Part shown: positions 43,896-59,389 of the stretch, one piece after another
Position numbering within the stretch: the stretch's first letter is position 1
Layout: the number at the start of each line of letters is the position of its first letter
Source of the DNA: Nocardioides sp. BP30
GTDB lineage: Bacteria > Actinomycetota > Actinomycetes > Propionibacteriales > Nocardioidaceae
Assembly: GCF_029873215.1 (NCBI RefSeq)
Contig: NZ_CP123620.1
Location: forward strand, 1,054,001 to 1,118,000
Reading direction: 5' to 3'
DNA length: 64,000 nt
Position numbers and translations under genes: made by a program
Notes under the pieces: model-generated
What the model was told of the DNA's origin: nothing
The model's input: the letters and a program-made list of their open reading frames with translations, nothing else
The model's database searches: none

Positions 43896-45296
43896 TCAAC
43901 CGGCGCAGAGGGGTGAGGACGGCGCGGACTGCGCCGCCGTCGCTCCGGCGCCGCGCAGCAGCGTCACCTGGAGGCATCGCTCGCCCCGGTGCGGCAGGGC
44001 GAGGTCGGTGCGCTCGATCCGGCCCTCGCGTCCGGTCGTGCTCTCCCGCCAGACGAACGCGTCACCGTCCTGGGCCCCGCCCGGTACCGACCAGCTGAAC
44101 CGGACCTTCCCGCCCGCCACATCGCCCGTGACCACCGGTGTGGGCGGCCGGACCGTCTCAGTGACGGCTGCCGAGGCAGAGGGGCCCAGGGACGGTTCGC
44201 CACCCTGATCGCCCTTGCCGCCACCGCGGATGAAGAGCCCGACCAGCACCGCAGCCGCCACCACGACCGCCGCGGCCGGCCACAGCCACCCGCGACCGCG
44301 CTCGCTCGGCCCGGTCCCGACCGGCTCCGCCTCGGCTCCCGGTACGACGGCGCCTGGCTGCGAGGCGGACTGCGAGCCGGCGATGCTGACGGGCTTGACC
44401 CGGGTGGCGTCGTCCGAGGGCGTCGCGGCGTAGGTCTGGCCGGACTCCACCGCGACAGCCGTCCGGCCGAAGCCGAGCTCGGCCTCGATCCGCTGCAACG
44501 AGCGCGCCACCTCCAGCGCCGACTGCGGGCGGTGGGAGGGGTCCTTGGCCAGGCACTGCTGCAGCAGCCGGTCCAGCGCGGGCGGTACGTCGGGGCGCTG
44601 GGTGGCCGGTGGCGGCGCGTGCAGGATCCGCGCCACCAGGGCCCGATCGGAGTTGTCGCCGTGCGGCGCCGCGAAGGGGGAGCGGCCGACCAGGAGGTTC
44701 CACACGGTCGCGCCGAGGGAGTAGACGTCGGAGGCGATCGAGCCGTGCGAGCGGCCCTCGATCAGCTCCGGCGGGGCCCACGGGTAGGACATCCTCACCT
44801 CGCCCTCGGACTCGACCTCGTGCACGAGTCCCGCGATGCCGAAGTCGGTCAGCGCGGGCTCGGAGTAGGTCGTGACGAGCACGTTGGACGGCTTGATGTC
44901 GCGGTGCAGGATGCCCGAACGGTGAGCGGTCTCCACCGCGCTGGCCAGCTTCACGCCGGTGGACAGCGTCTCCGCGACGCTCAGGGGCGTCACCCGGACC
45001 CGGGCGCCGAGGTCCGGTGGCGGGCAGTAGCGCATCACGAGGTAGGGACGCCCGTCGGTGGTCTGACCGGCGGTCAGGACCGAGACGATGTAGGGGTGGT
45101 CGGCCAGCCGGGCCATCGCGTCGGCCTCGCTGCGGAACAGCTCCTTCTCGCGCTCGGAGAGCACCAGGTCGGCGCGGACCACCTTGACCGCGACCCGCTG
45201 GCGCGGCCACTCCTGCTCGTAGAGGAGGACGTCGGCGAAGCCGCCCGTCCCGAGGTGCTGCACGAAGGTGAAGCCGGGGATCTGGGGTTGGGACAC
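43896..45296 (-). CDS. transmembrane Ser/Thr protein kinase
   Basis: A 466-residue PknB-like kinase. The catalytic domain (about 8-265) has the glycine loop GTGGFADV, Lys38 in VAVKVV, HRDIKPSN, DFGIAG and an APPEL in place of APE. A linker precedes one membrane segment (about residues 336-358, WLWPAAAVVVAAAVLVGLFI). The ~100-residue extracellular part is a small beta-rich, FN3-like domain (GKVRFSWSVPGG, DAFVWRE) with two Cys (ERCLQV, PLCAG). GTG start at 45296 with AGAGGAAG upstream. It is the downstream partner of the FHA gene, so it would phosphorylate a target read by that FHA domain. Confidence 0.92.
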   Translation of the reverse strand: MSQPQIPGFTFVQHLGTGGFADVLLYEQEWPRQRVAVKVVRADLVLSEREKELFRSEADAMARLADHPYIVSVLTAGQTTDGRPYLVMRYCPPPDLGARVRVTPLSVAETLSTGVKLASAVETAHRSGILHRDIKPSNVLVTTYSEPALTDFGIAGLVHEVESEGEVRMSYPWAPPELIEGRSHGSIASDVYSLGATVWNLLVGRSPFAAPHGDNSDRALVARILHAPPPATQRPDVPPALDRLLQQCLAKDPSHRPQSALEVARSLQRIEAELGFGRTAVAVESGQTYAATPSDDATRVKPVSIAGSQSASQPGAVVPGAEAEPVGTGPSERGRGWLWPAAAVVVAAAVLVGLFIRGGGKGDQGGEPSLGPSASAAVTETVRPPTPVVTGDVAGGKVRFSWSVPGGAQDGDAFVWRESTTGREGRIERTDLALPHRGERCLQVTLLRGAGATAAQSAPSSPLCAG

Positions 45297-45316
45297 GAAC
45301 TTCCTCTCGCGGGTGC

Positions 45317-46015
45317 TCAGGTGGTCTCGACCAGGAAGGTCACGGTGAAGTCGCCGGACAGGACGAGCGCGCAGCCGGGTTCGAGGACGTGCGGGTCGTG
45401 CGGTCGCAGCCGGACCGGCGGCCGCCCGGGCGCATGCAGCGCCGTACCTCCGCTGGAGCCGAGGTCGCGGGCCAGCACGTGCCAGCCGTCGAGCTCGACC
45501 GCGAGGTGGTGGCGCGACAGGTGCGTCAGGTCGGCCGGCAGCTCCACCAGGTGCGGCCAGGGCTCGCCACCGGGCAGCGGCACCGGGCGGCGCCCGAGCA
45601 CCGCGGCGCGGTCGAGCAGCACCCGCACCCCTTCGGGCAGGTGCAGCATGCCCAGGGGCGGGCGTGGCACCCGGATCGGCTCCTGCGGCGGCACGGGCTC
45701 CCCACAGCAGCGACAGTACGGCGCAGCAGGCGGCGAGAAGTGTCCGGCCGGACACCACACCGCCGGCACCGTCGCACCTGTCGGTTGGCGCAGTGCGCCG
45801 GTGGCGTGCGCGGCGCCGGCACGCGCCCGGGTGCGGCTTTCGGGCTCGCCGCCGGCCGGCCCCGGCGTCGGCCCCGGCGTCGGCCCCGGCGTCGGCCGGG
45901 GCTGCGACTCGTCGGATCCGTCGCCGACGGGTTCGTGCCGCAGCCGCGGGGGAGGGGCGGACTGGCCTCGCAGGTGCGCCGGCACCTCGATGATCAGCCC
46001 GTCCTCGTCGTCCAC
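45317..46015 (-). CDS. zinc-ribbon / FHA-domain protein
   Basis: A 232-residue protein. A Pro/Gly/Thr-repeat linker is followed by a zinc-ribbon (CPAGHFSPPAAPYCRCCGEPV) and a C-terminal FHA domain (AVLGRRPVPLPGGEPWP, LSRHHLAVE, DLGSSGGTAL). The middle FHA Arg and Ser are present, although GSTNGT is altered to GSSGGT. It should bind a phosphothreonine, perhaps on the kinase below or the AAA+ ATPase above. GTG 46015 is preferred; the in-frame ATG 46099 would share its base pairs with the divergent AAA+ start. Confidence 0.82.
   Translation of the reverse strand: MDDEDGLIIEVPAHLRGQSAPPPRLRHEPVGDGSDESQPRPTPGPTPGPTPGPAGGEPESRTRARAGAAHATGALRQPTGATVPAVWCPAGHFSPPAAPYCRCCGEPVPPQEPIRVPRPPLGMLHLPEGVRVLLDRAAVLGRRPVPLPGGEPWPHLVELPADLTHLSRHHLAVELDGWHVLARDLGSSGGTALHAPGRPPVRLRPHDPHVLEPGCALVLSGDFTVTFLVETT
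45860..45895. repeat. 12-bp coding tandem repeat
   Basis: The unit CCCCGGCGTCGG occurs three times and encodes PTPG repeats in the linker of the FHA protein on the minus strand. Confidence 0.85.
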
Positions 46016-46097
46016 GGCACCATCATGTCCGGATCCGAGGCGCTCAACCGCCGGTTCCGGCAAGGTGAGCGTCCTCGATAAGGCATGCTGCGGTGTC

Positions 46098-48104
46098 ATG
46101 GTCTCGTTGCGGCAGCCGGCATCGGAGGGCCTCGTGCCCGTCGAGGGATCGCCGATGCTCGATCTGCGGGCGCGCCTGGACCTGGCCGGGGGCCGACGCT
46201 CGGGTGGGGACTGGAGCTACAGCCTCGCCTTCGCGGAGTGCCTGGCGACCATGGCCGAGGAGCACCGGCAGGCCGAGGGACTGCCGGACATCGGTGCCGA
46301 GCCGCTGGAGCGGATCGCCGACGTCTTCGGCCTGAGCCGCGCGGAGGCCGCCCTGCTGTGGGCGGTGGCCGCTCCCGACCTGGACGCGAACTCCGGGATC
46401 GCCTACGGGCTGCTGCGGGGCATCCTCACCAGCGGACGGGTCACCGTCGCGCTCGCGCTCGAGCTCGCCGGCATCCCGACGGCGAGCGGCGACGCCTTCG
46501 CCCTGCTCGGTTCGTCGTCGCGATTGCGCCGTCACCGTCTCGTCGAGGTGGTCGACGCCTCGGTGCCGTGGCTCCTCGCCGAGCTGCGCTGCCCCGAGCC
46601 GGTGCTCGCAACGCTCGCCGGCGGCCTGCCCACCGATCCCGAGGTCGACCGGCTGCGCATCGAGCTGGCCCCGGTCGCCGGTGAGACGACCGCCCTGGTC
46701 GCCGACGCGCTCTCGGCCGACGTGCCGCTGGTGTGGGTCCGTTCGGCGTCGGCGCACAGCGGCTCGGCGGTGGCCGCCGGCGCGTTCGCCTGGCTGCGCC
46801 TGCACTGGATGGCCATCGACCTGCACCGCCACGACCCGTCCCAGCGCCTCTCCGAGGTGCTCACCGCGGCCGCCCGCAACGCCGGCCTGCGCGGCTGGGG
46901 GCTGGTGGTCCTCGGCGGCGAGGCGGCTGCCGAGAGCGCCGAGCGTGGCGTCTTCGACGTCCTGACCGCCGCCGCGACGCCGGTGGTGGTGGTCAGCGGC
47001 AAGGCCTGGAACGCGAACTGGGGTGCGCAGATGCCGCTGCTGGTCGAGGCCGAGCCGTTCACCCCCGAGGACAGGGTCGAGCTCTGGGCCCGTGAGCTGG
47101 GCGACGAGGTCGACGACCAGGCCGGCCTGCGCGAGCAGCTGCTCGGTCTCCGGCTGCCGGGGGAGGGCATCGTCGAGGCGGCCCGCTACGCCCGCGAGGT
47201 CGCCGCAGCGCGGCACACCGACCTCGGCCCGGCGGAGATCCGCGAGGCAGCGCGCCGGGTGGGTGGCGCCGGCGGCGGCGACAGGTTCTCCGGCCTGGCC
47301 ACCGGGCGCGGGCCCACCTTCGCCGACCTCGTGCTGCCCTCGAGCACCACCGAGGAGCTGCACAACATCGTCAGCTGGGCCCGCCACCGCGACAGTCTCG
47401 GCGCCACCGGCATCCTGCGTGGCCGGGGCCGGGGCATCTCAGCGCTGTTCACCGGCAACCCGGGCACCGGCAAGACCCTGGCCGCCCACGTGATCGCCGA
47501 GGAGCTCGCGATCGAGCTCTACCAGGTCGACCTGTCCAGCATCGTGGACAAGTACATCGGCGAGACCGAGAAGAATCTGGAACGGGTCTTCCAGGCCGCC
47601 GAGGCGCTCGACGTGGTGCTCTTCTTCGACGAGGCCGACTCGCTGTTCGGCAAGCGCTCCGACGTCAGCGACGCCCGCGACCGCTATGCCAACCAGGAGG
47701 TCGCCTACCTCTTGCAGCGGATGGAGAACTTCGACGGCATCACGGTCCTGTCGACCAACCTGCGCGGCAACCTCGACAAGGCCTTCAGCCGCCGGATGAG
47801 CTTCATCGTGAACTTCCCCGACCCCGACGCCGCCACGCGGGCCCGACTCTGGGAGCACCACCTCGCGCAGCTGCCTGCGCTGGACGCCGACGACCCGGTC
47901 GACGTGACGCTGCTGGCCGAGACCGCCGAGGTCGCCGGCGGCGACATCCGCAACATCGTCCTCGCGGCGGCCTACCACGCCGCTGCCGGCGCCGTACCGG
48001 GGACGCACGGGGCCGTGGGTCAGCGGCACGTCGCCAACGCGGCGGTCCGGGAGTACCGCAAGCTCGGCCGGATGGTGCCCGATCACCACTTCCGCCGCGG
48101 CTGA
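46098..48104 (+). CDS. AAA+ ATPase of eCIS-associated (Afp15-like) type
   Basis: A 668-residue protein. The N-terminal ~420 residues comprise helical and alpha/beta segments, with a degenerate P-loop-like domain (about 190-330). The C-terminal AAA+ module has Walker A GNPGTGKT (Lys459), Walker [13 protein letters not shown] (Asp511, Glu512), sensor 1 VLSTNLRGN and the arginine finger region [10 protein letters not shown]. This pairing of a degenerate N-terminal ATPase half with [12 protein letters not shown] is seen in the Afp15/PVC15 ATPases of contractile injection systems, where it may unfold or assemble cargo. Start: ATG 46098, or 46155. It heads the plus-strand cluster; the DUF4157 gene follows after 181 bp. 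Confidence 0.85.
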
Positions 48105-48201
48105 GCTGCCCGGGACAGGGTCGGGACGGTGCGGCACACGGTCCCGACGAGTCCGGCCGAGCGTCCTGAGCGATTCCGCCTCCCGGCGGCCCGAGTGCCG
48201 A

Positions 48202-48207
48202 CATAAT
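48202..48207 (+). promoter_or_regulatory. possible -10 box of the DUF4157 gene
   Basis: CATAAT is preceded by TGCCGA in a very GC-rich context, 79 bp before the DUF4157 ATG. No clear -35 hexamer was found. It suggests independent transcription of the DUF4157 and repeat-protein genes. Confidence 0.45.
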
Positions 48208-48285
48208 GGGCCCGGTCCGGCCACGATGCCGGCCAGCAGGCGCACGGTGTCGCACGGCCGTGCCCACGACAGGGCTGAGGGAGCG

Positions 48286-48858
48286 ATGAGCGAGCTGGCG
48301 GTGCAGGAGCAGCAGCACGCCGTTCCCGAGCCTGCCCCGGCTCGCTCCGGCTCGGAGAGCATCGTCGGCGAGCGCGAGGTCGAGCCGAGCAGGCCGCTGG
48401 CCGGTCTGAGCCGTCCCGTCGACGGCGCCGACCCGATGGGCGGTGCCGCGGCGCCGGCCTCGGTGAGCGCTGTCCTGCGCGCCGGCGGGTCGCCGCTGCC
48501 GGCCGGCGTGCGCCGCACCATGGAGCAGTCCCTGGGCACCGACTTCTCGGCGGTGCGCCTGCACACCGGCGGTGCCGCCGAGCGGTCGGCGGCAGACGTA
48601 TCGGCCCGGGCCTACAGCTCGGGCAACAACATCGTTCTCGGGAACGGCACCGACCTGGCCAGCGAGTCCGGGATGCACACCCTCGCGCACGAGCTGACCC
48701 ACGTGGTCCAGCAGCGCCAGGGCCGCGACCGAGGCACGAGCGGCACGGTCGGGAAGGCGAACGATCCACTCGAGCACGAGGCCGAGTCGACCGCACACGA
48801 CGTCATGGGCGCGCTCCGTCGCCAGACGAAGAACTGCGGCTGCGGGCAGGAGCACTGA
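48286..48858 (+). CDS. DUF4157 (eCIS-core) domain protein
   Basis: A 190-residue protein. Residues 1-60 are disordered; the DUF4157 domain follows: PLPAGVRRTMEQSLGTDFSAVRLHTG, AYSSGNNIVLG and LAHELTHVVQQR with a zinc-like HExxH (His135, Glu136, His139). DUF4157 is the hallmark domain of eCIS-associated toxins and cargo. This is the bare domain with a short Cys-rich tail (NCGCGQEH) and no fused toxin. ATG at 48286 with GAGGGAG upstream. Its stop overlaps the next ATG (TGATG), so it is coupled to the 1110-residue protein. Confidence 0.93.
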   Translation: MSELAVQEQQHAVPEPAPARSGSESIVGEREVEPSRPLAGLSRPVDGADPMGGAAAPASVSAVLRAGGSPLPAGVRRTMEQSLGTDFSAVRLHTGGAAERSAADVSARAYSSGNNIVLGNGTDLASESGMHTLAHELTHVVQQRQGRDRGTSGTVGKANDPLEHEAESTAHDVMGALRRQTKNCGCGQEH

Positions 48859-51800
48859 TGACCACGACCCCCACCCCGACCAAGAAGACGCCGCCCCCGG
48901 TCCCGCCGCGCAAGCGCGCGAACACCCAGGGGCCCACCTCGACGCCCACCCTCACGCCGCCGGTGCAGGGCTCCTCGCGCCCCACCACGCCTCCGCCGCC
49001 GACCCCGACGATGAGCACGCCGCCGGCGCCGAAGCGGTGGCGGACCGAGAACATCGGGCTCCAGTCGATCAGCGGCGGTGCTCCCGAGGACGCCGGTGCC
49101 CCGAAGACGGCCATCGAGGAGCTCGCCGAGAAGCACGGCGCCCCCGAGACGACGTACGGTCGGCACTCCTCGAGCGAGACCACGACCGAGAACACCTACA
49201 ACGCCGACGGCATCCCCAACGGCGTGGACAAGAAGACCACGAAGGAGGCCTCGGTCGGCACCCTGTCGGAGTCCGGGCACGAGAGCATGGTCGTCGGCTC
49301 GGGCGGCGGGGTGAGGACCTCCAAGACCGAGACCGAGGCGCTCGCCGGGGCGCAGGTCAAGCTCGAGGCGCTCGCCCGGGTCTCCGACGAGGAGCTCAAG
49401 GTCGCCGTCGAGATGCTGGCCCGGGCCGGCGCCTTCGGCAAGGCCTCCGCCGAGGGCAGCGCGCGCTACGGGAAGGCATCCGTCGCCGGCAAGGCCGAGG
49501 CCGAGGGCGGGGCCGGTGTCCAGGCCGAGCTGAAGGCCGAGGCCAGCATCGACCGCAGCAAGCGGATCCCCCAGCTGGCCGCGGCCATCGAGGCCGGGAT
49601 CAAGGCCGGTATCTGGGGGAGCGCGTCCGCCAAGGGTGTCGCCAAACTCGGGCCGCTCGCCTTCATGGTCGCCGCCAAGATCGAGGCCTGGGCCGGAGCG
49701 CAGGCCGACTTCAAGGCCGAGGTCTTCGCCAACGCCGCGCAAGGCATCGGCGCCTCGCTCGAGGCCAAGGCCCAGGCCGGTGCCGGGGTCGAGGGCTCGG
49801 TGGCCGGGTCGGTGGACCTCGGCCCGCTGGGCTTCGACGTCAGCGCCGAGGCGGCCGCCTTCGCCGGCGTCCAGGGCAAGTTCGAGGCAGGCTTCAGGGT
49901 CTCCCTGACCGGCATCCAGGCGAAGTTCGAGGCGTCCGCCTTCGCGGGCGCCAAGGCCTCGATCGGCGGCAAGGCGGGCATCCGCATCCGGGGACGCAAG
50001 CTGGTCAGCATCAAGGGCGAGATCGAGGTCTACGCCGGCGTCGGCGGCAAGGCCAAGGGCAGCTTCGGCATGGGAGGCGACTGGTCGAAGGCGGGCAAGG
50101 GCGCCGGCACCTACAGCGAGTCCGAGCGCAAGTCCTCGGCGTACGGCGCGAAGGACGACGACGTCAAGGCGCCGTTCGAGATTGACAAGGACGGCACGAT
50201 GAAGTTCGGCGGCGCGCTCGGTGCCGCGCTCGGCATCGGTGCCTCCGTCGACCTCGAGGCCGAGCTCGACCTGGCCGGCATCGGCGAGGTCATCATCGTC
50301 GGCATCACCGAGCTCGGCCGCAGCGACGACAAGAAGTCGCTGGACCGGATGGGCCCGGACTTCAAGCGCGAGGACCTGCCGGCGGATCACCCGATGGCCA
50401 AGCGGATGTTCAAGAAGGGCTACGAGGGCGTCTTCCCCAGCTTCAAGGCCTACGCGCAGACCAAGGCCGTGAAGGGCAACAACGGCGTCAAGCGCGACAA
50501 GGTCCAGACCATGCTGGACGAGATCAATCCCCTGCTCCGGCCCTACTTCACGTACAAGGAGACCGACAAGGGCATGAGCCAGGCCGCGAAGGACGCCTTC
50601 CGCGGCCAGGTCAAGGAGGTCGAGATCGAGGCCGGCCAGATCAAGAAGTGGGTCGACGAGTCGGACACCGACGTCACCGACTTCAAGGGCCGGATGAAGC
50701 AGGAGGAGAGCTGGCGCAAGAGCCGCGACAAGCTCCGCAACGCCTTCGCCGAATACGCCTCCAAGAAGGAGACCAAGGGCGATCACGGCGTCAAGCGCGA
50801 GAAGGTCCAGGCCATCATCGACAAGCACTGGGCCGAGCTGGCGACCGTGTTCGGCGCAGACGCCCCCGAGCTGGTGAAGTACGCCGCCGAGCTCGCCCGG
50901 ATGGACAAGTACTTCGAGGCCGGCAGCTTCGGCGTCGACGCACAGGGCAAGCTGCTGACGACGGCCAAGATCGACGACGCCGGCTCGAAGAACATCAAGG
51001 ACGAGTACAAGACCAGCACGGCCATGCGCTCGATGCTCGGCCAGCTCAACGACCTCGAGTCCGACCTGAAGTCCTATCTGAGCCAGGGCATGGCGAAGAA
51101 GAAGGAGTTCACCGGGCCCGGGGTGGTCAAGATCGTCGCCACGCACGCGGCCAAGCTGAAGACGAACACCCCCGGGCTCAACGACGTCATCGCCCATACG
51201 GTCAAGTCCGCGCTGGGTGAGGCGGTGGACGTGGTCACGACCAAGGATTGCAAGATCGAGACGCTGACCATGGCCAGCACGAACATCACCCGGATGCAGG
51301 CCGACGCCGCGACCGAGGCGGTGAAGAAGAAGGTCATCTCCTCGATCTCGGCCTACCTGGAGCGCAAGACCGGCCAGGGTGACCACGGCGTCAAGAAGGA
51401 CGGCATCAACAAGCGCCTCAAGGAGGCCACCGGTCCGATCTCGGCCGCACTGGCCGGCGGCGCCCGGGACGCCGAGATCAAGGCGTGGGTCGAGGAGGCG
51501 CTCGCCCCGGTGCAGGGCACCGTCACCGTCGTCAACGGGCAGCTGAGCCTCGACCCGGTCGTGCCGGGGATGATGGAGGCCAAGAAGCGTCGCAAGGAGG
51601 ACGGCAAGGCCATCCTCCAGGGTGGCGCGGAGCTGGACAACGTCCGGCGCAGCATGGTGATGGACAAGCTGCGCGATCCGCTGACGGCGTACCAGCAGAG
51701 CCACATGCGCGCCGTGATCGCCTCGCCGGGCATGAAGCTGGACCAGGCGGCGCTCCAGGCCATCATCGACAAGGCCATGAAGTCGGTGGCCAAGGACGTG

Positions 51801-52190
51801 CGCGGTGCCGTCGGCGACGGTGCCATCCACCAGGCGATCGTCGAGCGCTTCCCGATGGTCGACGCCGACAGGACGAGGGTCGAGAATCTCCAGCTCACGC
51901 TGGTCGAGCAGCCCGGCTGGGGTCAGAAGCTGGCCAACGACCGCAGGAACGGCACCGGCAAGGGCGCCGCCAGCGCTGCCATCACCCAGGAGATCCGCAG
52001 CGCCGGGATCAAGCTGCGACGGCCCGACACCCTGCAGCGGGTGGTGGACAAGCACGCGATGCGCTTCAAGACCGAGGAGCGCGACGAGGGCATCAAGCAG
52101 GCCATCGAGGCCGGGTTCGACGCCGGCACCATCGAGACCCTGGTCGTCACCGACGGCAAGGTCAAGAAGTTCAAGCTGAAGGGCAAATGA
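48858..52190 (+). CDS. 1110-residue Ala/Gly-rich and repeat protein, candidate eCIS-like cargo
   Basis: Unrecognised. Residues 1-62 are Pro/Thr-rich. Residues about 158-410 form a long Ala/Gly/Lys/Glu region of alternating short beta-like or amphipathic units (GKAEAEGGAGVQAELKAEA, KIEAWAGAQADFKAEVFA), without signal peptide. Residues about 530-1110 hold six diverged copies, 85-115 residues apart, of a helical unit whose best-conserved core is KGDHGVKREKVQAIID (near 534, 638, 748, 835, 950 and 1034). Coupled to the DUF4157 gene and to the next gene by overlaps, so it may be a substrate handled by the AAA+ ATPase. There is no obvious enzymatic motif. Confidence 0.75.
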   Translation: MTTTPTPTKKTPPPVPPRKRANTQGPTSTPTLTPPVQGSSRPTTPPPPTPTMSTPPAPKRWRTENIGLQSISGGAPEDAGAPKTAIEELAEKHGAPETTYGRHSSSETTTENTYNADGIPNGVDKKTTKEASVGTLSESGHESMVVGSGGGVRTSKTETEALAGAQVKLEALARVSDEELKVAVEMLARAGAFGKASAEGSARYGKASVAGKAEAEGGAGVQAELKAEASIDRSKRIPQLAAAIEAGIKAGIWGSASAKGVAKLGPLAFMVAAKIEAWAGAQADFKAEVFANAAQGIGASLEAKAQAGAGVEGSVAGSVDLGPLGFDVSAEAAAFAGVQGKFEAGFRVSLTGIQAKFEASAFAGAKASIGGKAGIRIRGRKLVSIKGEIEVYAGVGGKAKGSFGMGGDWSKAGKGAGTYSESERKSSAYGAKDDDVKAPFEIDKDGTMKFGGALGAALGIGASVDLEAELDLAGIGEVIIVGITELGRSDDKKSLDRMGPDFKREDLPADHPMAKRMFKKGYEGVFPSFKAYAQTKAVKGNNGVKRDKVQTMLDEINPLLRPYFTYKETDKGMSQAAKDAFRGQVKEVEIEAGQIKKWVDESDTDVTDFKGRMKQEESWRKSRDKLRNAFAEYASKKETKGDHGVKREKVQAIIDKHWAELATVFGADAPELVKYAAELARMDKYFEAGSFGVDAQGKLLTTAKIDDAGSKNIKDEYKTSTAMRSMLGQLNDLESDLKSYLSQGMAKKKEFTGPGVVKIVATHAAKLKTNTPGLNDVIAHTVKSALGEAVDVVTTKDCKIETLTMASTNITRMQADAATEAVKKKVISSISAYLERKTGQGDHGVKKDGINKRLKEATGPISAALAGGARDAEIKAWVEEALAPVQGTVTVVNGQLSLDPVVPGMMEAKKRRKEDGKAILQGGAELDNVRRSMVMDKLRDPLTAYQQSHMRAVIASPGMKLDQAALQAIIDKAMKSVAKDVRGAVGDGAIHQAIVERFPMVDADRTRVENLQLTLVEQPGWGQKLANDRRNGTGKGAASAAITQEIRSAGIKLRRPDTLQRVVDKHAMRFKTEERDEGIKQAIEAGFDAGTIETLVVTDGKVKKFKLKGK

Positions 52191-52627
52191 GCGAGCGCGT
52201 GCACTTCTACGCCTACGGCACCGGCGTCTCGCTGGAGCTGCCCGCCGGCTTCGAGCAGGTCGAGGACGGCGAGACCACCGCGACCTACGCCGAGCTCGGC
52301 GACGCCGCCGCGGTCGGGCCGCAGACGCCAGCGCTCCAGATCCGGGTCGTCGGCGCCGTACCGGAGCAGGATCCGGACGGCGCCGCCACGGTGGCCCGGT
52401 TGGCCGACCAGCTGGCCGGCTCCGGCATCCTGCTCGGCCGGACCGACCGGGTCGTGGACCAGTGTCCGGTCACCACCGTCGAGATCGAGCGCGACGGGTC
52501 CTACCTGCACCTGAGCGCCGCGGCCGCCGACGGCCGACTGCTCACCTTCGCCGGCCGCGGGAACGCGGCGGCCAGCTTCACCGTCTGGGACATCGCCATC
52601 GAGTCGACGAGGTTCATCACGCTGTGA
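52187..52627 (+). CDS. small protein, possibly DcrB/PsbP-like
   Basis: A 146-residue protein without signal peptide. VSLELPAGFEQVEDGETTATYAEL and AAASFTVWDIAIESTRF resemble the Mog1p/PsbP-like fold seen in DcrB-type accessory proteins. Start ATGA overlaps the repeat-protein stop; its own stop overlaps the next GTG. Function unknown. Confidence 0.6.
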   Translation: MSERVHFYAYGTGVSLELPAGFEQVEDGETTATYAELGDAAAVGPQTPALQIRVVGAVPEQDPDGAATVARLADQLAGSGILLGRTDRVVDQCPVTTVEIERDGSYLHLSAAAADGRLLTFAGRGNAAASFTVWDIAIESTRFITL

Positions 52628-53118
52628 CCACCGAGAACGCCCCCACCTGGGCCAACGTCACCCTGAGCGACCTGCTGCTCTCGCTGCAGGTCCCCGACGG
52701 CTGGGAGGCCGAGCCGGAGGAGTACGCGGTCACCCTGCGCGGCCCCTCCGACGAGGACTACACCCCGACGGTCACGCTCCAGGAGGGCGAGCCGGAGGAG
52801 CCGGGACACGACTGGTGGCTCGACTTCACCGAGCAGATCGTCGGGCACCTCATCGACAGCTCGCCCGGGTTCGAGCTGGTCGGGCAGCGCGAGTTCCGGC
52901 TCTCCTCGCTGGACGCCGAGGTGTACGCCGTCACGGCCCACTGGGAGTCCGCCGACCCCCGCGTCCCCGAGACCACCCAGCTGCAGGCGTGGATCTGGGC
53001 GGGCAGCACGCGGATGTACTCCTTCAGCGCCTCCACCTCGGTGGCCCACGAGGAGCGCGACCTGCCCGTGTTCGACCACATGCTCGACTCGGTCAGGCTG
53101 CTGCCCGCGCGACCCTGA
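52624..53118 (+). CDS. DcrB/PsbP-like (DUF1795-type) protein
   Basis: A 164-residue protein with SLQVPDGWEAEPEEYAVTLRGP, EFRLSSLDAEVYAVTAHW and a C-terminal FDHMLDSVRLLP, the DcrB/PsbP-like (Mog1p fold) pattern often found as a small chaperone or immunity-like protein beside effector genes such as type VI cargo. GTG start overlaps the previous stop. Last gene of the DUF4157-repeat-protein operon; the surface-protein gene follows after 66 bp. Confidence 0.7.
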   Translation: MTTENAPTWANVTLSDLLLSLQVPDGWEAEPEEYAVTLRGPSDEDYTPTVTLQEGEPEEPGHDWWLDFTEQIVGHLIDSSPGFELVGQREFRLSSLDAEVYAVTAHWESADPRVPETTQLQAWIWAGSTRMYSFSASTSVAHEERDLPVFDHMLDSVRLLPARP

Positions 53119-53184: not shown

Positions 53185-56100
53185 GTGGGATTCAGGGGCG
53201 GGGGACGGGCGTGGCTCGCGCCGTACCTCGCCCTGGTGCTCGTGGTCGCCGGGGTGGTCGTCTTCGCGGTGCAGGCCCAGGGCTTCCAGACCCACAAGGC
53301 CGAGCTCAACGACGGCGGGATCTGGGTCACCGACTCGCGACTGGGCTACTACGGCCGGGTGAACAAGCCGATCGGGCAGCTGGACGGTGCGCTGTTCGCG
53401 CGGACCGACGCCACCCTCGACATCGTCCAGGAGGGGGCCGCAGTGGTCGGCGTCGACGCCGCCGGCGGGAGCGTGTCGACCATCGACCCCGCCACCGTCG
53501 CGGTGCCCGGTGGGGCGAGCGCCCAGATCCCGGTCGGCGGCCAGGTCGTGCTGTACGGCGGAACCCTCGCCGTACTCGATCCCGGCACCGGCAAGGTGTG
53601 GGCGATGCCGGTGGACGACGAGGCGGGCGACCCGCTGGTGAGCGGCATCGACGCCGGGAGCAAGCCGCTGGCGACCGTGGGCGCCAACGCCGCGATGACG
53701 GTGACGGCGAGCGGCCGGGTGGTCCTGGCCGCGGCCGGCTCCACGAGGTTGACGACACTCACGCCCGACCACGGCCGGTTCACGCTGACCAGTGCCACCC
53801 TGCCGCGACGTCCCGGAGAGGGGCTCAGCCTCACGGCGGTGGGGGACCGGGTGGTGTTGCTGGACCCGGCGGCCTCGACCGTCACGGTGCTGAGCGATGG
53901 CCGGGCCGGCGCGCACGCCCAGGTCGGGGCCGACGCGGTGCTGCAGCAGCCCGGGCCGGCCGACGACTCGGTGCTGGTCGCCGACGGCAGCCGGCTGCTC
54001 GCCGTCGGCCTCGACGACGGCACCACCACGACCCTGGCGCACGACCTGGCCGGCACGCCCGCCCGGCCGGTCCGCCTCGGTGACTGCCAGTACGGCGCCT
54101 GGGGCGGCGCCGCCGGCCTGGTCGTCACCCGCTGCGGCGGCGGCACCGCCCAGGTCGGCCAGCTGGGCGCTGGAACGAGCACGAACCTCGTGTTCCGGGT
54201 CAACCGCGGCTCGATCGTGCTCAACGACTCGACCACCGGAGCGGTCTGGAACGTCGACGACAAGCAGCCGACCCGGCTCGACGACTGGCAGTCGTTCCAG
54301 AAGAAGATCGTGCAGCACAAGTCCGACGACCGGCAGAAGGACCAGGCCTCCGCCGACCGGAGCCCACCGAAGGCCCAGCCCGACCACTTCGGCGCGCGTC
54401 CGGGCCGGACCACCGTGCTGCACCCGCTCGACAACGACGCCGCCCCGGCCGGGCGGCTGCTCGCCATCTCCGCGGTGCAGGACGTCCGTCCCCAGGGCGC
54501 GGCGGTCTCGGTGAGTCCGGACGGCCAGACGGTGGAGATCACGATGCCCGCCAGGCCGGCGGCCAGGACCACCTTCGAGTACTACGTCAACGATGGCCGC
54601 CAGGGTGTCTCGGCGCACGCCACCGTCACCGTCGACGCGCGCTCGGCGACCCAGAACAGGCCCCCCGCGCTGCGCAAGGGCTACCAGGCGTTGCGATGGG
54701 ACGTGCCGGCGGCGGGCGCGATCACCCTGCCCGTCCTGCCGGACTGGCGCGACGACGCCGACGGCGACCCGCTCGGCCTGGCCTCGGCGAAGATCGTCTC
54801 CGGGCCGCAGGGCGCGACGGCACGGGTGACGGCCTCGGGGCAGGTGCGCTTCACAGCGCCGACCAAGGGGGGTGAAGCGGTCGTCGAGTACGGCGTCACC
54901 GACGGCATCGCGCCGCCGGTCAGCGAGCAGGTGCACGTGCACGTCCAGGCGCTGACCGACCACCAGGCGCACGCGGCCACCGCCCAGCCCGACGTCGTCG
55001 TCGGCCAGGCGGGCAAGCCGATCACGATCCATCCGCTGGACAACGACCTGCCCGGGTCGGACCCGATCACGCCGGACGCGACGCTCAAGTTGGCCGGCAA
55101 GGTCACCTCGACCGGCGGCGGCCAGGTCGACACCGACGTGGCCAACGGCACGGTCACGTTCCGGTCCACGGCTCCCCGGACCTACTTCCTCGACTACGAC
55201 GCCGCGTTCGGCAACGCGCCCTTCTCACGTGGGCGGATCCGGGTCGACGTCCGGGCTGCCGACCATCCGCCGAAGGCCCCGGTGGCGATGCCGGACAGCC
55301 TGACGCTGTACGGACAATCGGCCGGGATGGTCGACGTCCTGGCCAACGACGTGGATCCGGCCGGCCAGCTCCTGGTGGTGCAGACAGCGGCGACGACCAC
55401 CACCGGTCAGCTCGACGTCGCCGTCGTCGGCGGCCGCTGGGTGCGGATCTCCGCTGCTCGCCCCGACATCAACCCCAACCCGCAGGTCGTGCACTACACG
55501 ATCAGCGACGGCGACCGCTCGGGCATCCAGGGCGACATCGTGGTCAGTCAGCGACCGGAGCCTCAGGACGACACCCCGGTGACCCAGGACGACCAGGTCA
55601 CCGTCCGGGCGGGCAGCGGCACCCAGGTGTCGGTCCTCGACAACGACTACAGCCCCGACGGCGAGCAGCTGCACCTGGTCTCGGACCCCGTCGCGGGCAC
55701 CACCGCCGGGCAGCTGGGCGTGGAGGCTCCGGGCGAGAAGAGTGCGCTCGGTCAGGCCTTCGTCAGTGGGCGGACGGTGCGCTTCAACGCCCCGGCGTCT
55801 GTCACCGACACCATCACCGAGACGGTGACCTATGTGGCGGCCAACGAGCGCGGCGACACCGCTCCCGGCACCCTGCGCGTCACCGTCCTGCCGGCCGACC
55901 AGCCTAACCAGGCGCCCGAGCCGACGGTGCTCGAGGGACGGGTGGTCGCGGGCGACCAGGTCCGCCTCCAGCTGCCGGGTTCGGGCGTCGATCCCGACGG
56001 CGACCCGGTGACACTGACCGGCATCTCGTCGGCGCCCAGCCTCGGCCGCGTGCTGCGTGCGGGCGCCGACTCGCTGGTCTACCAGGCGTTCCCGGACAGC

Positions 56101-59100
56101 GCGGGCACCGATGACTTCACCTACACCGTCGCCGACCCCAACGGCGGTACGGCGACGGGCACGGTGCGGGTCGGCGTCGTCCCACCGGCGGTGCCGGCGG
56201 CACCGGTGGCGGTCGACGACACGGCGACGGTGGCACCGGGGCGCACGATGACGGTCGACGTGCTCGCCAACGACCAGGTGGCCGCGACCGACCGGGTCAC
56301 GGTGGCGCTGGTGCGTCCCGCCCCCGGCGGTGTCAGCGTCGACGCCGAGACCGGTGCGATGCGGATCAAGGCGCCGGCGAGGGCCGACGGCCGGGAGGTG
56401 CAGGTCAACTACACCATCAGCGACGGTGTGCACAGCTCGCAGGCGACTGTCACGCTGCGCACCCAGTCCGGGTACGACAACCCGCCGGTGATCGAGGACG
56501 CCTACGGTACGGACGCCGCCGGCGGTGCCGGCTCGGCCCGGGTCAGCGTCGACGTGCTCAAGACCGCCTACGACCCCGACGGCCCGGCCTCCGCGCTCAC
56601 GGTCACCAGCGTCGCGGCACCTGCCGGGATCCGCGCGCAGGTGCGCGGCGGGACCATCACGATCGATCGTGCCGGTCGCCCGATGGTGGTGCCCTTCGTG
56701 GTCGCCGACGGCGACGGCGGGGTGGCGACCGCACGCCTCTACGTCCCGGCGAAGGGTGACGCGACGCCCTACGTGCGCGCCGATGCGCTGATCGACGTCC
56801 CTCCGGGGCAGGACGTCGCCGCCGACCTCGCCGACTACGTGGTCAACCCGTCCCGCGGCCCCCTCACGTTCACCCTCAAGGACCGGGTCTGGGCAGCGCC
56901 CGACGCGGGGGTCAGCGCCAGCATCACCGGCAAGGGCACCTTCACCGTGCACGCCGCGAAGGACTACGCCGGCCCCGGGGCGGTGAGCTTCGAGGTCACC
57001 ACCGGACGGTCGACGGCGATCCTCTCGGTGCCGGTCCAGGTCGGCGAGACCAAGCCGGTGCTGCGCTGCCCCAGCGATCCGCTGCCCGTCGCCCAGGGAC
57101 AGAAGATCCTGCTCGACGTCGGGAGCATCTGTCATGTCTGGACGGCGCAGGCCGGCCAGGCGCTGTCCTACGCCGCCGACTGGAAGACCTCCTCCGCCGG
57201 TCTCGCCATCGTGGACGCGCAGGGCGCCCAGGTCAGTGTCGCCGCCGCTGCCGACGCCGCACCGGGGACGCGCGCGGTGCTGCAGCTGCGGGCCAACGGC
57301 AGCGACCCCGCCTACCTGCCCGTCACGGTGGTAGCGGTGCCGCCGCCGACGCTTGCCCCGATCTCCATCTCCGACCTCAAGGCGGGCCAGAGTCGCACCA
57401 TCGACCTCGCGCCGTACCTCCACGCGGGCGTGCCGGTGCCGCAGCCACAGATCGTGTCGATCGCCCAGACGACGGCGCTCGACGTGCACGCGACCGTGCA
57501 CGGGGCATCGGTCACGCTGAGCGCCGGCCCCAAGGCGTTCGGCAAGGCGACCTTCGGGCTGGTGATGTCGGACGTGGCCGGCAACCCGCCACCCAATCGG
57601 ACGGTGGCAGGGACGCTCACCCTCTCGCTCCAAGCGACCCCCGACGCACCCGCCGCCCCGCATCCGGGGAAGAGCGGCGACGGCGCGGTCCCGCTGTCGT
57701 GGACCGCACCCGCGGCCAACGGATCACCGATCACCTCCTACGAGGTGCGGGCCGACCACGGTGGTCCGACGGTGACGTGCCCGACCACCAGCTGCACCGT
57801 GACCGGCCTGACCAACGGGGTCGACTACAGCTTCCAGGTCCGCGCGTCCAACGCGGTCGGCTCCTCGGCCTGGAGCCCGAGCTCGTCGACGGCGGCGCCC
57901 GACGTGGCGCCGTTCCCGGTGACCGGCATCACCGAGGCGGCGGTCGGTGACGGCTCCATCACCCTGCACTGGACCAAGCCCAGCAACAAGACCTCGGCGG
58001 TGACCTACACGGTCACCTACCCGGGCGGCACGCCCATCGACACCACCCGGACCGAGGCCACCGTCTCGGGGTTGAGCAACGACAACACCTACGTGTTCAC
58101 GATCGTGGCGACCAACACCAAGGGACAGCAGAGCCAGCCCGCGCTGTCGGCGCCGTACCAGTCCGTCGGGTCGCCGGGGACGCCGGCGGCGCCGACGATC
58201 ACCACCACGCCCTCGGCCGACGACACGGCAGTGGTCACCGTCAGCTGGAACCAGGTCGACCCGAACGGCCCCGGGCCGGTGCGCTACCGCGTCATCGCGG
58301 TGCCCTACGCCGACGGCGGCGCCTGCACCCAGGATCCCGACGGCATCACCGGCACCTCCTGCACCTTCTCGAGCATCGCCTACGACGGCACGCAGTACCA
58401 GTTCGAGGTCGAGGCTCTCAGCCCCGGCACCGGCAGCGGGGTCACCGGCGGCCAGCCGCGGCGTTCCACCGGTGCGAAGCGGAGCTGGAAGGCGGTCGGC
58501 CTGCCGGCACCGTGGGGCGGATGGTCGCTCGACGCCACCGGGAGCGACGAGGAGGCCTCGGTGCACGGCTTCAGCGTGCCGAACTCGCACGGAGGCACCT
58601 CGACGTTCAAGGTCGTCCGCGGCGACGACGTCGTCTACTCCTCGGCCAGTCCGCCCCCGGCGGTGACGGTCAACACCCCCGACAACGACCAGCCCTACTC
58701 GTTCCACCTCGAGGTCTGCAACGAGAACGGCGAGTGCAGCAAGTCCTCCACCAAGTCGGTGACGACCTACGGTCCGCTCGGCGACAACGACATCCTCAGC
58801 GTCGATCCGATCATGAGCGGGTACGACGTCGGCTGGCGGGTCACCGTCGACAGCAACGGGAAGTCGGGCGTCTCCGTGGTGCTCAGGAACCAGGACAACG
58901 TCCAGCTCGGCAGCTGGACCACCACCGACGTCGACGTGCAGTCCTTCGAGGTCGACCCGACGTACCTGGGCTATGACGCCACGCAGAGCGTCACCGCCAC
59001 GATCAGCGACGCCGGGCGTCGTAGCGGCAAGAAGCCCGCGACGAGCGGCCGGACACCCGACCTGAAGATCAGCGTGGGGCGCGGAGCGAAGTGCGGTGGT

Positions 59101-59370
59101 GGGACCGACACCGCCTGCACGGACGACGACAACTGCACCGACCAGTCGTGTGGCTACCTCCACATCACCACCCAGGGGTACGGCGACGCCACCGGCTCGA
59201 CGCGCTGGAGCTGCTACAGCAGCCAGTTCGGCCGGCTCGGGCCCTTCACCGGCGACGTGGACCAGGATCTGCCCCAGTCCTACGGTGAGCCGGGCCAGAG
59301 CTTCAGCGGCAGGTGCACCGACAGCAGCGGTACCGCCCGGGACTTCTCCGGCAATTGGCCATCGAACTGA
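53185..59370 (+). CDS. giant surface protein: propeller-like, Ig-like repeats, FN3
   Basis: A 2061-residue protein with one N-terminal membrane anchor (about 9-31, WLAPYLALVLVVAGVVVFAV) and a large extracytoplasmic part. Residues about 45-355 are a beta-propeller-like region. Residues about 390-1470 are an array of cadherin/Ig-like units with the motif VDVLANDxxPxG/VLDNDYSPDG, at least seven copies. Three FN3 domains follow at about 1485-1750, then a Cys-rich C-terminus. Family members of this kind precede MoxR-DUF58-transglutaminase genes in actinobacteria, as here. GTG start at 53185. Likely cell-surface adhesion or scaffold. Confidence 0.85.
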   Translation: MGFRGGGRAWLAPYLALVLVVAGVVVFAVQAQGFQTHKAELNDGGIWVTDSRLGYYGRVNKPIGQLDGALFARTDATLDIVQEGAAVVGVDAAGGSVSTIDPATVAVPGGASAQIPVGGQVVLYGGTLAVLDPGTGKVWAMPVDDEAGDPLVSGIDAGSKPLATVGANAAMTVTASGRVVLAAAGSTRLTTLTPDHGRFTLTSATLPRRPGEGLSLTAVGDRVVLLDPAASTVTVLSDGRAGAHAQVGADAVLQQPGPADDSVLVADGSRLLAVGLDDGTTTTLAHDLAGTPARPVRLGDCQYGAWGGAAGLVVTRCGGGTAQVGQLGAGTSTNLVFRVNRGSIVLNDSTTGAVWNVDDKQPTRLDDWQSFQKKIVQHKSDDRQKDQASADRSPPKAQPDHFGARPGRTTVLHPLDNDAAPAGRLLAISAVQDVRPQGAAVSVSPDGQTVEITMPARPAARTTFEYYVNDGRQGVSAHATVTVDARSATQNRPPALRKGYQALRWDVPAAGAITLPVLPDWRDDADGDPLGLASAKIVSGPQGATARVTASGQVRFTAPTKGGEAVVEYGVTDGIAPPVSEQVHVHVQALTDHQAHAATAQPDVVVGQAGKPITIHPLDNDLPGSDPITPDATLKLAGKVTSTGGGQVDTDVANGTVTFRSTAPRTYFLDYDAAFGNAPFSRGRIRVDVRAADHPPKAPVAMPDSLTLYGQSAGMVDVLANDVDPAGQLLVVQTAATTTTGQLDVAVVGGRWVRISAARPDINPNPQVVHYTISDGDRSGIQGDIVVSQRPEPQDDTPVTQDDQVTVRAGSGTQVSVLDNDYSPDGEQLHLVSDPVAGTTAGQLGVEAPGEKSALGQAFVSGRTVRFNAPASVTDTITETVTYVAANERGDTAPGTLRVTVLPADQPNQAPEPTVLEGRVVAGDQVRLQLPGSGVDPDGDPVTLTGISSAPSLGRVLRAGADSLVYQAFPDSAGTDDFTYTVADPNGGTATGTVRVGVVPPAVPAAPVAVDDTATVAPGRTMTVDVLANDQVAATDRVTVALVRPAPGGVSVDAETGAMRIKAPARADGREVQVNYTISDGVHSSQATVTLRTQSGYDNPPVIEDAYGTDAAGGAGSARVSVDVLKTAYDPDGPASALTVTSVAAPAGIRAQVRGGTITIDRAGRPMVVPFVVADGDGGVATARLYVPAKGDATPYVRADALIDVPPGQDVAADLADYVVNPSRGPLTFTLKDRVWAAPDAGVSASITGKGTFTVHAAKDYAGPGAVSFEVTTGRSTAILSVPVQVGETKPVLRCPSDPLPVAQGQKILLDVGSICHVWTAQAGQALSYAADWKTSSAGLAIVDAQGAQVSVAAAADAAPGTRAVLQLRANGSDPAYLPVTVVAVPPPTLAPISISDLKAGQSRTIDLAPYLHAGVPVPQPQIVSIAQTTALDVHATVHGASVTLSAGPKAFGKATFGLVMSDVAGNPPPNRTVAGTLTLSLQATPDAPAAPHPGKSGDGAVPLSWTAPAANGSPITSYEVRADHGGPTVTCPTTSCTVTGLTNGVDYSFQVRASNAVGSSAWSPSSSTAAPDVAPFPVTGITEAAVGDGSITLHWTKPSNKTSAVTYTVTYPGGTPIDTTRTEATVSGLSNDNTYVFTIVATNTKGQQSQPALSAPYQSVGSPGTPAAPTITTTPSADDTAVVTVSWNQVDPNGPGPVRYRVIAVPYADGGACTQDPDGITGTSCTFSSIAYDGTQYQFEVEALSPGTGSGVTGGQPRRSTGAKRSWKAVGLPAPWGGWSLDATGSDEEASVHGFSVPNSHGGTSTFKVVRGDDVVYSSASPPPAVTVNTPDNDQPYSFHLEVCNENGECSKSSTKSVTTYGPLGDNDILSVDPIMSGYDVGWRVTVDSNGKSGVSVVLRNQDNVQLGSWTTTDVDVQSFEVDPTYLGYDATQSVTATISDAGRRSGKKPATSGRTPDLKISVGRGAKCGGGTDTACTDDDNCTDQSCGYLHITTQGYGDATGSTRWSCYSSQFGRLGPFTGDVDQDLPQSYGEPGQSFSGRCTDSSGTARDFSGNWPSN

Positions 59371-59389
59371 CCCCGCACAGGAGCACCAC

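What the first reader, a model, noticed from the sequence alone, without database searches (positions are those of the whole stretch)
43896..53118. Kinase-FHA-AAA+-DUF4157-repeat-protein cluster resembling an eCIS accessory module without the injection machine
Seen: minus-strand kinase and FHA genes, and plus-strand AAA+ ATPase (Afp15-like), DUF4157 protein, 1110-residue repeat protein and DcrB-like proteins, most of them overlapping. Known: DUF4157 and Afp15-type ATPases are marker families of extracellular contractile injection systems. Inferred: with no sheath, tube, spike or baseplate gene here, the ATPase, DUF4157 and repeat protein may form a stand-alone toxin-loading, secretion or defence module controlled by phosphorylation.
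Basis: partly seen in the sequence, partly recalled or inferred. Interest (0 to 1): 0.88.

Follow-up and report, generated by a model that had tools for sequence, protein, structure and literature searches.

The report
Remote cargo-loading cassette for injection machine
Five genes tucked between two unrelated conserved genes look like a cargo protein plus its own loading motor for a phage-tail-like injection machine whose structural genes sit over a million bases away in the same bacterium, and some relatives scatter several such cassettes around their genomes while keeping one machine of this type.

Summary
The genes are real, but the reading changes. Kinase and FHA belong to a neighbouring cluster: in 15 relatives (of 21 with hits to both) FHA lies beside the Big/fn3 gene (12) or one gene away (3) without the five genes found here. 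What remains is a 7-kb inserted cassette: AAA+ ATPase, DUF4157/eCIS_core protein, 1110-aa repeat protein, two small proteins. The machine is not missing: sheath, tubes, spike, PAAR and baseplate genes lie at 4.12-4.13 Mb, 3.0 Mb away (1.25 Mb the other way round, if circular), with no AAA or DUF4157 match in the 56 kb fetched there. Across 294 family genomes, all 33 with this AAA and all 28 with strong DUF4157 carry the CIS tube. Fifteen share this machine subtype; of 28 AAA loci not beside a second CIS, 24 lie >50 kb from it (11) or on another contig (13), 20 of them near a DUF4157 gene. The 1110-aa protein is the body of a DUF4157 effector: nine distant homologues carry DUF4157 themselves. 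Best reading: a trans-encoded cargo-plus-loader cassette of a split eCIS. New variant of a known kind.

The parts
46098..48104 (+). AAA+ ATPase, Afp15/Pvc15-like: winged-helix region at residues 56-153, divergent middle, AAA domain at 450-574 with Walker A GNPGTGKT (453) and Walker B LFFDEA. Proposed cargo loader.
   Evidence: 38-42% identical, near full length, to ATPases 2.6-10.5 kb from the tube in G187, G203, G277, G280, G287, G050 (and in draft G065, tube on another contig)
48226..48858 (+). DUF4157 / eCIS_core protein with HELTH motif, 210 aa (probable start 48286, 190 aa). Proposed trans-acting effector leader/adaptor; the only DUF4157 hit in the genome.
48858..52190 (+). 1110-aa repeat protein: Pro/Thr-rich N-terminus, Ala/Gly-rich region with predicted beta repeats at about 171-480 (low confidence), alpha/beta repeats at about 512-1110; one Cys, no transmembrane segment by hydropathy. 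Proposed cargo (effector).
   Evidence: start overlaps the DUF4157 stop by 1 bp
52187..52627 (+). 146-aa protein of unknown fold, overlapping the 1110-aa gene by 4 bp; possible co-chaperone or immunity protein.
52624..53118 (+). 164-aa protein with predicted PsbP/Mog1 fold as in EagT6 and SciW; overlaps the previous gene by 4 bp. Proposed cargo chaperone.
43896..45296 (-). Ser/Thr kinase: NOT part of the cassette; flank of the insertion site.
45317..46099 (-). FHA protein (zinc ribbon by eye): NOT part of the cassette; left flank of the insertion site.
53185..59370 (+). Big_9/fn3/cadherin-like protein: right flank of the insertion site; first gene of a cluster followed by MoxR-, DUF58- and transglutaminase-like genes (the last three named by eye).

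Best explanation
Window 46098-53118 is a five-gene trans-encoded cargo cassette of a split extracellular-type contractile injection system (CIS). The machine is built from the cluster at 4.12-4.13 Mb. The cassette's AAA+ ATPase, an Afp15/Pvc15 relative, acts as dedicated loader: it engages the 1110-aa cargo, probably through its disordered N-terminus, and feeds it into the tube. The separate DUF4157 protein does in trans what the fused DUF4157 does in relatives, linking cargo to the spike/tube-initiator end. The Eag-fold protein keeps the cargo loadable. Shown here: gene content, the insertion site, the distant machine, the co-occurrence, and kinship of the 1110-aa protein with DUF4157-effector bodies. 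Inferred: physical loading, division of labour and cargo activity.
For: (1) The genome has a CIS locus with sheath, two tubes, PAAR/DUF4280, CIS_tube+LysM, spike, gp25, Baseplate_J and Tail_P2_I; 27 cassette AAA queries and the DUF4157 protein find nothing in the 56 kb fetched around it; the genome has one DUF4157 hit. (2) In 294 family genomes AAA (E<1e-40) is in 33, strong DUF4157 in 28, tube in 35; all 33 and all 28 have the tube (Fisher 1e-41 and 6e-33, not corrected for kinship). (3) Fifteen genomes have the same machine (sheath of the other 14 is 85-96% identical). Of their 30 AAA loci two sit by a second CIS; of the other 28, 11 are >50 kb from the tube on the same contig, 13 on another contig, 4 near; 20 of the 24 far ones have DUF4157 within 5 kb. 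In the four single-contig genomes 7 of 8 are >270 kb away. (4) Nine of the 17 proteins found with the 1110-aa query (itself included) carry PF13699 and align through its repeat body. (5) G242, G265 and G270 carry AAA+DUF4157 about 12 kb from the tube, G206 one 5-7 kb away. (6) Cassette genes are intact and constrained against Iso805N: dN/dS 0.11-0.24, the 146-aa gene 0.54. (7) Published: Pvc15 is needed for payload loading (PMC11495950, passages); DUF4157 protein Sle2 interacts with cargo Sle1 and, potentially, tube initiator SlpT2 (PMC13277306, section read).
Against: No loading, expression or interaction data. 12 of 36 DUF4157 loci in the subtype have no AAA within 5 kb, and 4 of 28 AAA loci have no DUF4157 hit within 5 kb, so the pairing is not strict. 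The 1110-aa protein has no recognisable toxic domain, a poor model over residues 1-499 and no fold or PHROG match. Its repeat body was found in only 2 of 294 family genomes (G000, G185; two candidates scored per genome); other hits of that search fall in the DUF4157 columns or are weak. The PsbP/Mog1 fold also occurs in immunity protein Tsi3 and unrelated families. Class-wide, ten far DUF4157 loci that I read have no AAA beside them, so a remote cargo does not need its own loader everywhere.
Confidence: 0.72

Rival explanations
1. Stand-alone loading, secretion or defence module under phosphorylation control.
For: No sheath or tube gene in the window; kinase and FHA adjacent; kinase and AAA domains show similarity to defence models.
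Against: Machine present in the genome; AAA and strong DUF4157 found only in tube-bearing family genomes, 33 of 33 and 28 of 28; kinase/FHA keep their place by Big/fn3 in 15 relatives without the cassette; the anti-phage ATPase model IteA scores 110 bits against a cut-off of 510.
Confidence: 0.06
2. Relic: the accessory end of a second or older eCIS whose structural genes were lost or moved, no longer feeding a machine.
For: Distance from the structural locus; in four relatives a cassette lies 5-13 kb from the tube.
Against: Reading frames intact and under purifying selection against Iso805N; no AAA was found at the genome's machine; relatives hold up to four found AAA loci, so relics would have to be many and conserved.
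Confidence: 0.1
3. The 1110-aa protein is a lumen or tape-measure-like structural component rather than an effector acting in a target.
For: Long, repetitive, no enzymatic domain; tape-measure-related CIS cargoes are published for Streptomyces (PMC11126660 passages, PMC13277306).
Against: Found in 2 of 294 genomes while the machine is shared by 15; no tape-measure hit in Pfam, PHROGs, PDB or the viral fold library, though the model is weak.
Confidence: 0.15
4. The 164-aa and 146-aa proteins are immunity proteins protecting the producer, not chaperones.
For: Tsi3, a T6SS immunity protein, matches the predicted fold of the 164-aa protein; some eCIS toxins are linked to antitoxins (PMC8213781, passages).
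Against: In other cassettes 10 of 15 tested 3' genes match YbjN at E<=0.1 and one TY-Chap1; EagT6 and SciW match the fold too.
Confidence: 0.25

Closest known systems
Pvc15/Afp15 ATPase of Photorhabdus virulence cassettes (PMC11495950, passages)
   Same: Winged-helix-like N region and one clearly active AAA domain; Pvc15 is published as loader of effectors.
   Different: Encoded 1.25-3.0 Mb from the machine, beside its putative cargo; relatives hold several copies. Among 27 such ATPases the first 405 residues are far more divergent (median pair 25% identical) than the ATPase part (52%).
Sle1/Sle2 pair of Streptomyces lividans SLP (PMC13277306)
   Same: Small separate DUF4157 protein next to a long cargo without DUF4157.
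   Different: Sle1/2 lie just upstream of the structural genes; here the pair is remote and has its own ATPase. The 1110-aa protein is a beta/alpha repeat protein without a transmembrane segment; Sle1 is described as coiled-coil with a predicted transmembrane hairpin.
DUF4157-fused eCIS-associated toxins (EATs; PMC8213781, PMC11297309, passages)
   Same: Nine homologues of the 1110-aa protein have this make-up.
   Different: Split into two overlapping genes here; 88% of EATs in PMC11297309 lie within ten genes of the eCIS operon.
Orphan hcp/vgrG/PAAR islands of T6SS (PMC13098142, search listing and abstract start only)
   Same: Effector-type genes away from a shared machine.
   Different: The travelling part is a loader ATPase with DUF4157 cargo, not a tube or spike protein.
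Far DUF4157 loci elsewhere in the class (G560, G426, G358, G535, G395, G536)
   Same: DUF4157 proteins far from, or on another contig than, the tube.
   Different: No AAA match beside any of the ten loci read; in G560 and G426 an AAA gene (cut by the stretch end in G426) lies by the structural cluster.

Membership tests
Extracellular contractile injection system (whole system) | Sheath, tube, spike, PAAR and baseplate genes in the genome | tested here: met
   (remote locus, 4.12-4.13 Mb)
Extracellular contractile injection system (whole system) | All components in one cluster | tested here: not met
   AAA and DUF4157 are 3.03 Mb away in contig coordinates; none found in 56 kb around the structural genes
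Extracellular contractile injection system (whole system) | Tail fibre and tail terminator genes | not tested
   no search made for these families
Extracellular contractile injection system (whole system) | Particle release and extracellular action | not testable with these tools
   none
Afp15/Pvc15 ATPase | AAA domain with Walker motifs plus winged-helix N region | tested here: met
   same two Pfam domains in the ATPase of the clustered locus L158
Afp15/Pvc15 ATPase | Second, inactive AAA-like D1 domain | tested here: inconclusive
   no Pfam hit at residues 161-405; structure not predicted
Afp15/Pvc15 ATPase | Loads cargo | not testable with these tools
   none
DUF4157/eCIS_core | PF13699 above cut-off with HExxH | tested here: met
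   97.9 bits, cut-off 22; HELTH at residue 155
Sle1/Sle2-type effector pair | Short DUF4157 gene adjacent to a long cargo lacking DUF4157 | tested here: met
Sle1/Sle2-type effector pair | Pair lies just upstream of the CIS structural genes | tested here: not met
Tape-measure-related CIS effector | Remote homology to tape-measure proteins | tested here: inconclusive
   no Pfam, PHROG, PDB or BFVD hit, but no sensitive profile-profile search was made and the model is weak
Tape-measure-related CIS effector | Transmembrane helices | tested here: not met
   highest mean hydropathy over 19 residues 1.34
Eag chaperone (DUF1795) | Eag/PsbP/Mog1 fold | tested here: met
   164-aa protein: EagT6 and SciW among Foldseek hits, but PsbP ranks first
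Eag chaperone (DUF1795) | Sequence match to the family; cargo with transmembrane region | tested here: not met
   no Pfam hit; no transmembrane segment in the 1110-aa protein
IteA/IetA anti-phage ATPase | NCBIfam equivalog cut-off | tested here: not met
   110.5 bits, cut-off 510

The most novel reading that the evidence does not exclude
One injector, many loaders: in this CIS lineage the loading ATPase has left the machine cluster and travels with the cargo, so that each dispersed cassette brings a cargo-matched loader, with a fast-diverging N-terminal half as specificity module and a conserved ATPase half, to one shared injector.
Probability: 0.5. Interest if true: 0.78.

Novelty: new variant of a known kind. 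Interest (0 to 1): 0.66.

Why it matters
How eCIS ATPases choose cargo is open: the Pvc15 paper asks whether chassis are promiscuous or specific (PMC11495950, passages). Genomes with one machine of this subtype and four found AAA loci (the search scored four candidates per genome, so perhaps more), most beside their own DUF4157 protein, are a natural experiment on it. It also means that effector searches limited to the neighbourhood of the structural cluster can miss cargo, and that clusters without an ATPase need not be incomplete.

Tried and rejected
Rejected: kinase/FHA as part of the system; stand-alone or defence system; a tape-measure identity of the 1110-aa protein found no support. Led nowhere: fold search of the 1110-aa model (all E>0.01); profile search of the 146-aa family against PDB sequences (best E 0.02); profile comparison of the two small-protein families (probability 2.8%) and of the 164-aa family with the YbjN-like set (0.5%). 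The pattern-based search for relatives of the 1110-aa gene in genome contigs found one locus, Nocardioides sp. Iso805N; its contig length equals that of G185:C1, so I take G185 for that strain.

Limits. One search scored only 4 AAA candidates per genome, up to 18, two, so locus counts are lower bounds. Fisher values ignore kinship. The AAA cut at E<1e-40 was set after seeing the gap between 6e-44 and 2e-24; ten weaker hits were dropped (nine genomes with only a weak hit, one extra in G051). Two weak partial DUF4157 hits (G139, G227) were dropped. The subtype was first picked by tube-hit pattern, then checked by sheath identity in the 14 genomes other than G000. Six of 21 relatives with both an FHA and a Big hit do not have them together (G162, G166, G170, G214, G281, G313); their matches are weaker (Big 30-33% identical), probably paralogues. 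The 15 small proteins of A4 were chosen by me: 14 of the 19 coupled 129-187-aa genes, plus a second one in L091; of the other five, L071's was scanned and had no Pfam hit.
Full report
Observation. The window is G000:C1:1054001-1118000 of a 4.28-Mb single-contig genome. Pfam confirms a kinase (43896-45296), FHA protein (45317-46099), AAA ATPase with a winged-helix domain (46098-48104) and eCIS_core/DUF4157 (48226-48858); the 1110-aa protein (48858-52190) and the two small proteins have no family in Pfam, NCBIfam or PHROGs. DUF4157, 1110-aa, 146-aa and 164-aa genes overlap by 1, 4 and 4 bp, so they read as one coupled operon behind the ATPase.

The module is smaller than reported. Of 58 genomes searched (G000 included), 21 besides G000 have hits to both the FHA protein and the Big_9/fn3 protein. 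In 15 of them FHA and Big lie together in the divergent arrangement with the kinase next to FHA: in 12 nothing else lies between, in 3 one gene of 263-282 aa. In the other six the matches are weaker and apart. In nine of the 12 with clean gene calls the FHA-Big gap is 15-251 bp; in the window it is 7.1 kb holding five genes. Thirteen of the 15 belong, by handle number, to the 294-genome set and show no DUF4157, CIS tube or AAA hit; G297 and G299 were not in it. Kinase and FHA therefore belong with the Big neighbourhood. Nocardioides sp. Iso805N has the cassette at the same place. Between the two, dN/dS is 0.11 (AAA), 0.24 (DUF4157), 0.22 (1110-aa), 0.54 (146-aa) and 0.20 (164-aa), with no internal stops.

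The machine is elsewhere. Sheath, two T4_gp19 tubes, DUF4280/PAAR, CIS_tube+LysM, Phage_base_V spike, gp25, Baseplate_J and Tail_P2_I genes lie at 4.12-4.13 Mb. Twenty-seven cassette AAA sequences find no match in 56 kb there or in the six structural loci of relatives searched with it; the window's DUF4157, kinase, FHA, 1110-aa and small proteins find none either. The genome has one DUF4157 hit and one AAA hit at E<1e-20 (4 of 20 candidates scored). Fibre and terminator genes were not sought.

Co-occurrence. In 294 family genomes: tube 35, AAA (E<1e-40) 33, strong DUF4157 28; every AAA and every strong DUF4157 genome has a tube; two tube genomes lack AAA and seven lack strong DUF4157. Fifteen genomes share this machine (sheath 85-96% to the window genome's). 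Of their 30 AAA loci two lie 12-16 kb from the tube of a second CIS (G239, G257); of the other 28, 11 are >50 kb from the tube on the same contig, 13 on another contig and 4 (G206, G242, G265, G270) within 7-13 kb. DUF4157 lies within 5 kb of 24 of the 28, and of 20 of the 24 far ones. In the 18 other genomes, 17 of 18 AAA loci are within about 20 kb of a tube; the exception, G065, is a fragmented draft. G158 has four AAA and five DUF4157 loci with one tube locus. Against a strict rule: 12 of 36 DUF4157 loci have no AAA within 5 kb; four of these lie on contig C8 of G239, which holds its second CIS.

What a cassette is. In relatives the usual order is AAA, then a protein of 563-1056 aa with N-terminal DUF4157 (one, L100, is called as 210 aa), often followed by a coupled small gene; in L088, L092, L094 and L098 the AAA gene follows the DUF4157 gene. 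Of 31 DUF4157 genes in the 41 loci, 19 have a coupled 3' gene of 129-187 aa. Of 20 DUF4157 proteins of relatives scanned, all have PF13699; five also match something else (calpain-type protease, phosphorylase, peptidoglycan binding over cut-off; PI3/4-kinase and ADP-ribosyltransferase below it) and 15 nothing. Of 15 small proteins chosen, 10 match YbjN at E<=0.1 (best 1e-7) and one TY-Chap1; of five YbjN matches shown with scores, one is over the cut-off. The window has the same layout, but DUF4157 and cargo are separate genes and the small proteins differ.

The 1110-aa protein. Seventeen proteins were found, itself included: nine carry PF13699 in their annotation and are 26-36% identical over 25-88% of the query; the alignment shows their DUF4157 N-terminal to the shared repeat body, of which the six short ones (658-703 aa) keep the first part only. 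So the window's pair is best read as the split form of a DUF4157 effector. The model has mean pLDDT 60, mostly below 50 at 1-499 and mostly 70-90 at 500-1110, where helix and beta-hairpin units recur; six units cut by eye align only loosely. Nothing in PDB or BFVD matches at E<0.001. It has one cysteine and no transmembrane segment by hydropathy. Residues 1-57 have pLDDT below 50 and are Pro/Thr-rich; published PVC signal peptides are 50-70 disordered residues (PMC11495950, passages), a resemblance only.

The ATPase. Across 27 cassette ATPases, the window's and Iso805N's included, the first 405 residues are 25% identical at the median pair and the ATPase part 52%. That fits, but does not prove, a cargo-specific N-terminal half.

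The 164-aa protein folds (pLDDT 91) as PsbP/Mog1; cyanobacterial PsbP ranks first and EagT6, SciW and immunity protein Tsi3 also match. Chaperone is my preferred reading; immunity is not excluded.

Wider comparison. In 335 class genomes, 49 of 50 with DUF4157 at E<1e-10 have a tube; of the 70 loci in those 49, 6 are >50 kb away on the same contig and 22 on another contig. Ten such loci read, from G560, G426, G358, G535, G395 and G536, show no AAA beside them, while the structural clusters of G560 and G426 have an AAA gene. Two layouts emerge: a loader at the machine with orphan effectors, and (here) loaders travelling with cargo.

Literature. Passages found by term in PMC13277306 (plus section 5 read), PMC11297309, PMC11126660, PMC11495950, PMC8213781, PMC12210884 and PMC12691689; PMC13098142 in listing only. 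Known: DUF4157 as eCIS marker, DUF4157 in trans, Pvc15 loading; 88% of EATs within ten genes of the operon, so some distant effectors have been seen before. I found no description of loader-cargo cassettes remote from the machine (searches; bioRxiv and most subscription journals not held). Statements on Eag chaperone biology are recalled.

Verdict. A trans-encoded cargo-loading cassette of a split CIS, confidence 0.72; dedicated loader per cargo, 0.5. New variant of a known kind.

Noticed in passing
window 43896-46099 and 53185-63926: Conserved neighbourhood kinase-FHA / Big_9-fn3 protein followed by MoxR-, DUF58- and transglutaminase-like genes (named by eye); kinase, FHA and Big stay together in 15 relatives without the cassette; function not studied.
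   Followed up: partly
L008:9230-14511 (+): Two adjacent proteins rich in CarboxypepD_reg/SdrD-like domains lie beside the CIS structural genes; homologues flank the same machine in several relatives. Possible fibre or surface partners.
   Followed up: no
L008:1367-4828 (-): 1153-aa Ala/Pro/Ser-rich protein without Pfam hit inside the CIS structural locus, conserved only in short stretches in relatives.
   Followed up: no
L078:12172-12735 (+): In one far cassette the coupled 3' gene looks by eye like a pentapeptide-repeat protein instead of a YbjN-like one.
   Followed up: no
L146-L153, L156, L157 (ten loci): Far DUF4157 proteins in other families of the class (G560, G426, G535, G358, G395, G536) without a neighbouring AAA match, in genomes with a CIS tube elsewhere.
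   Followed up: partly
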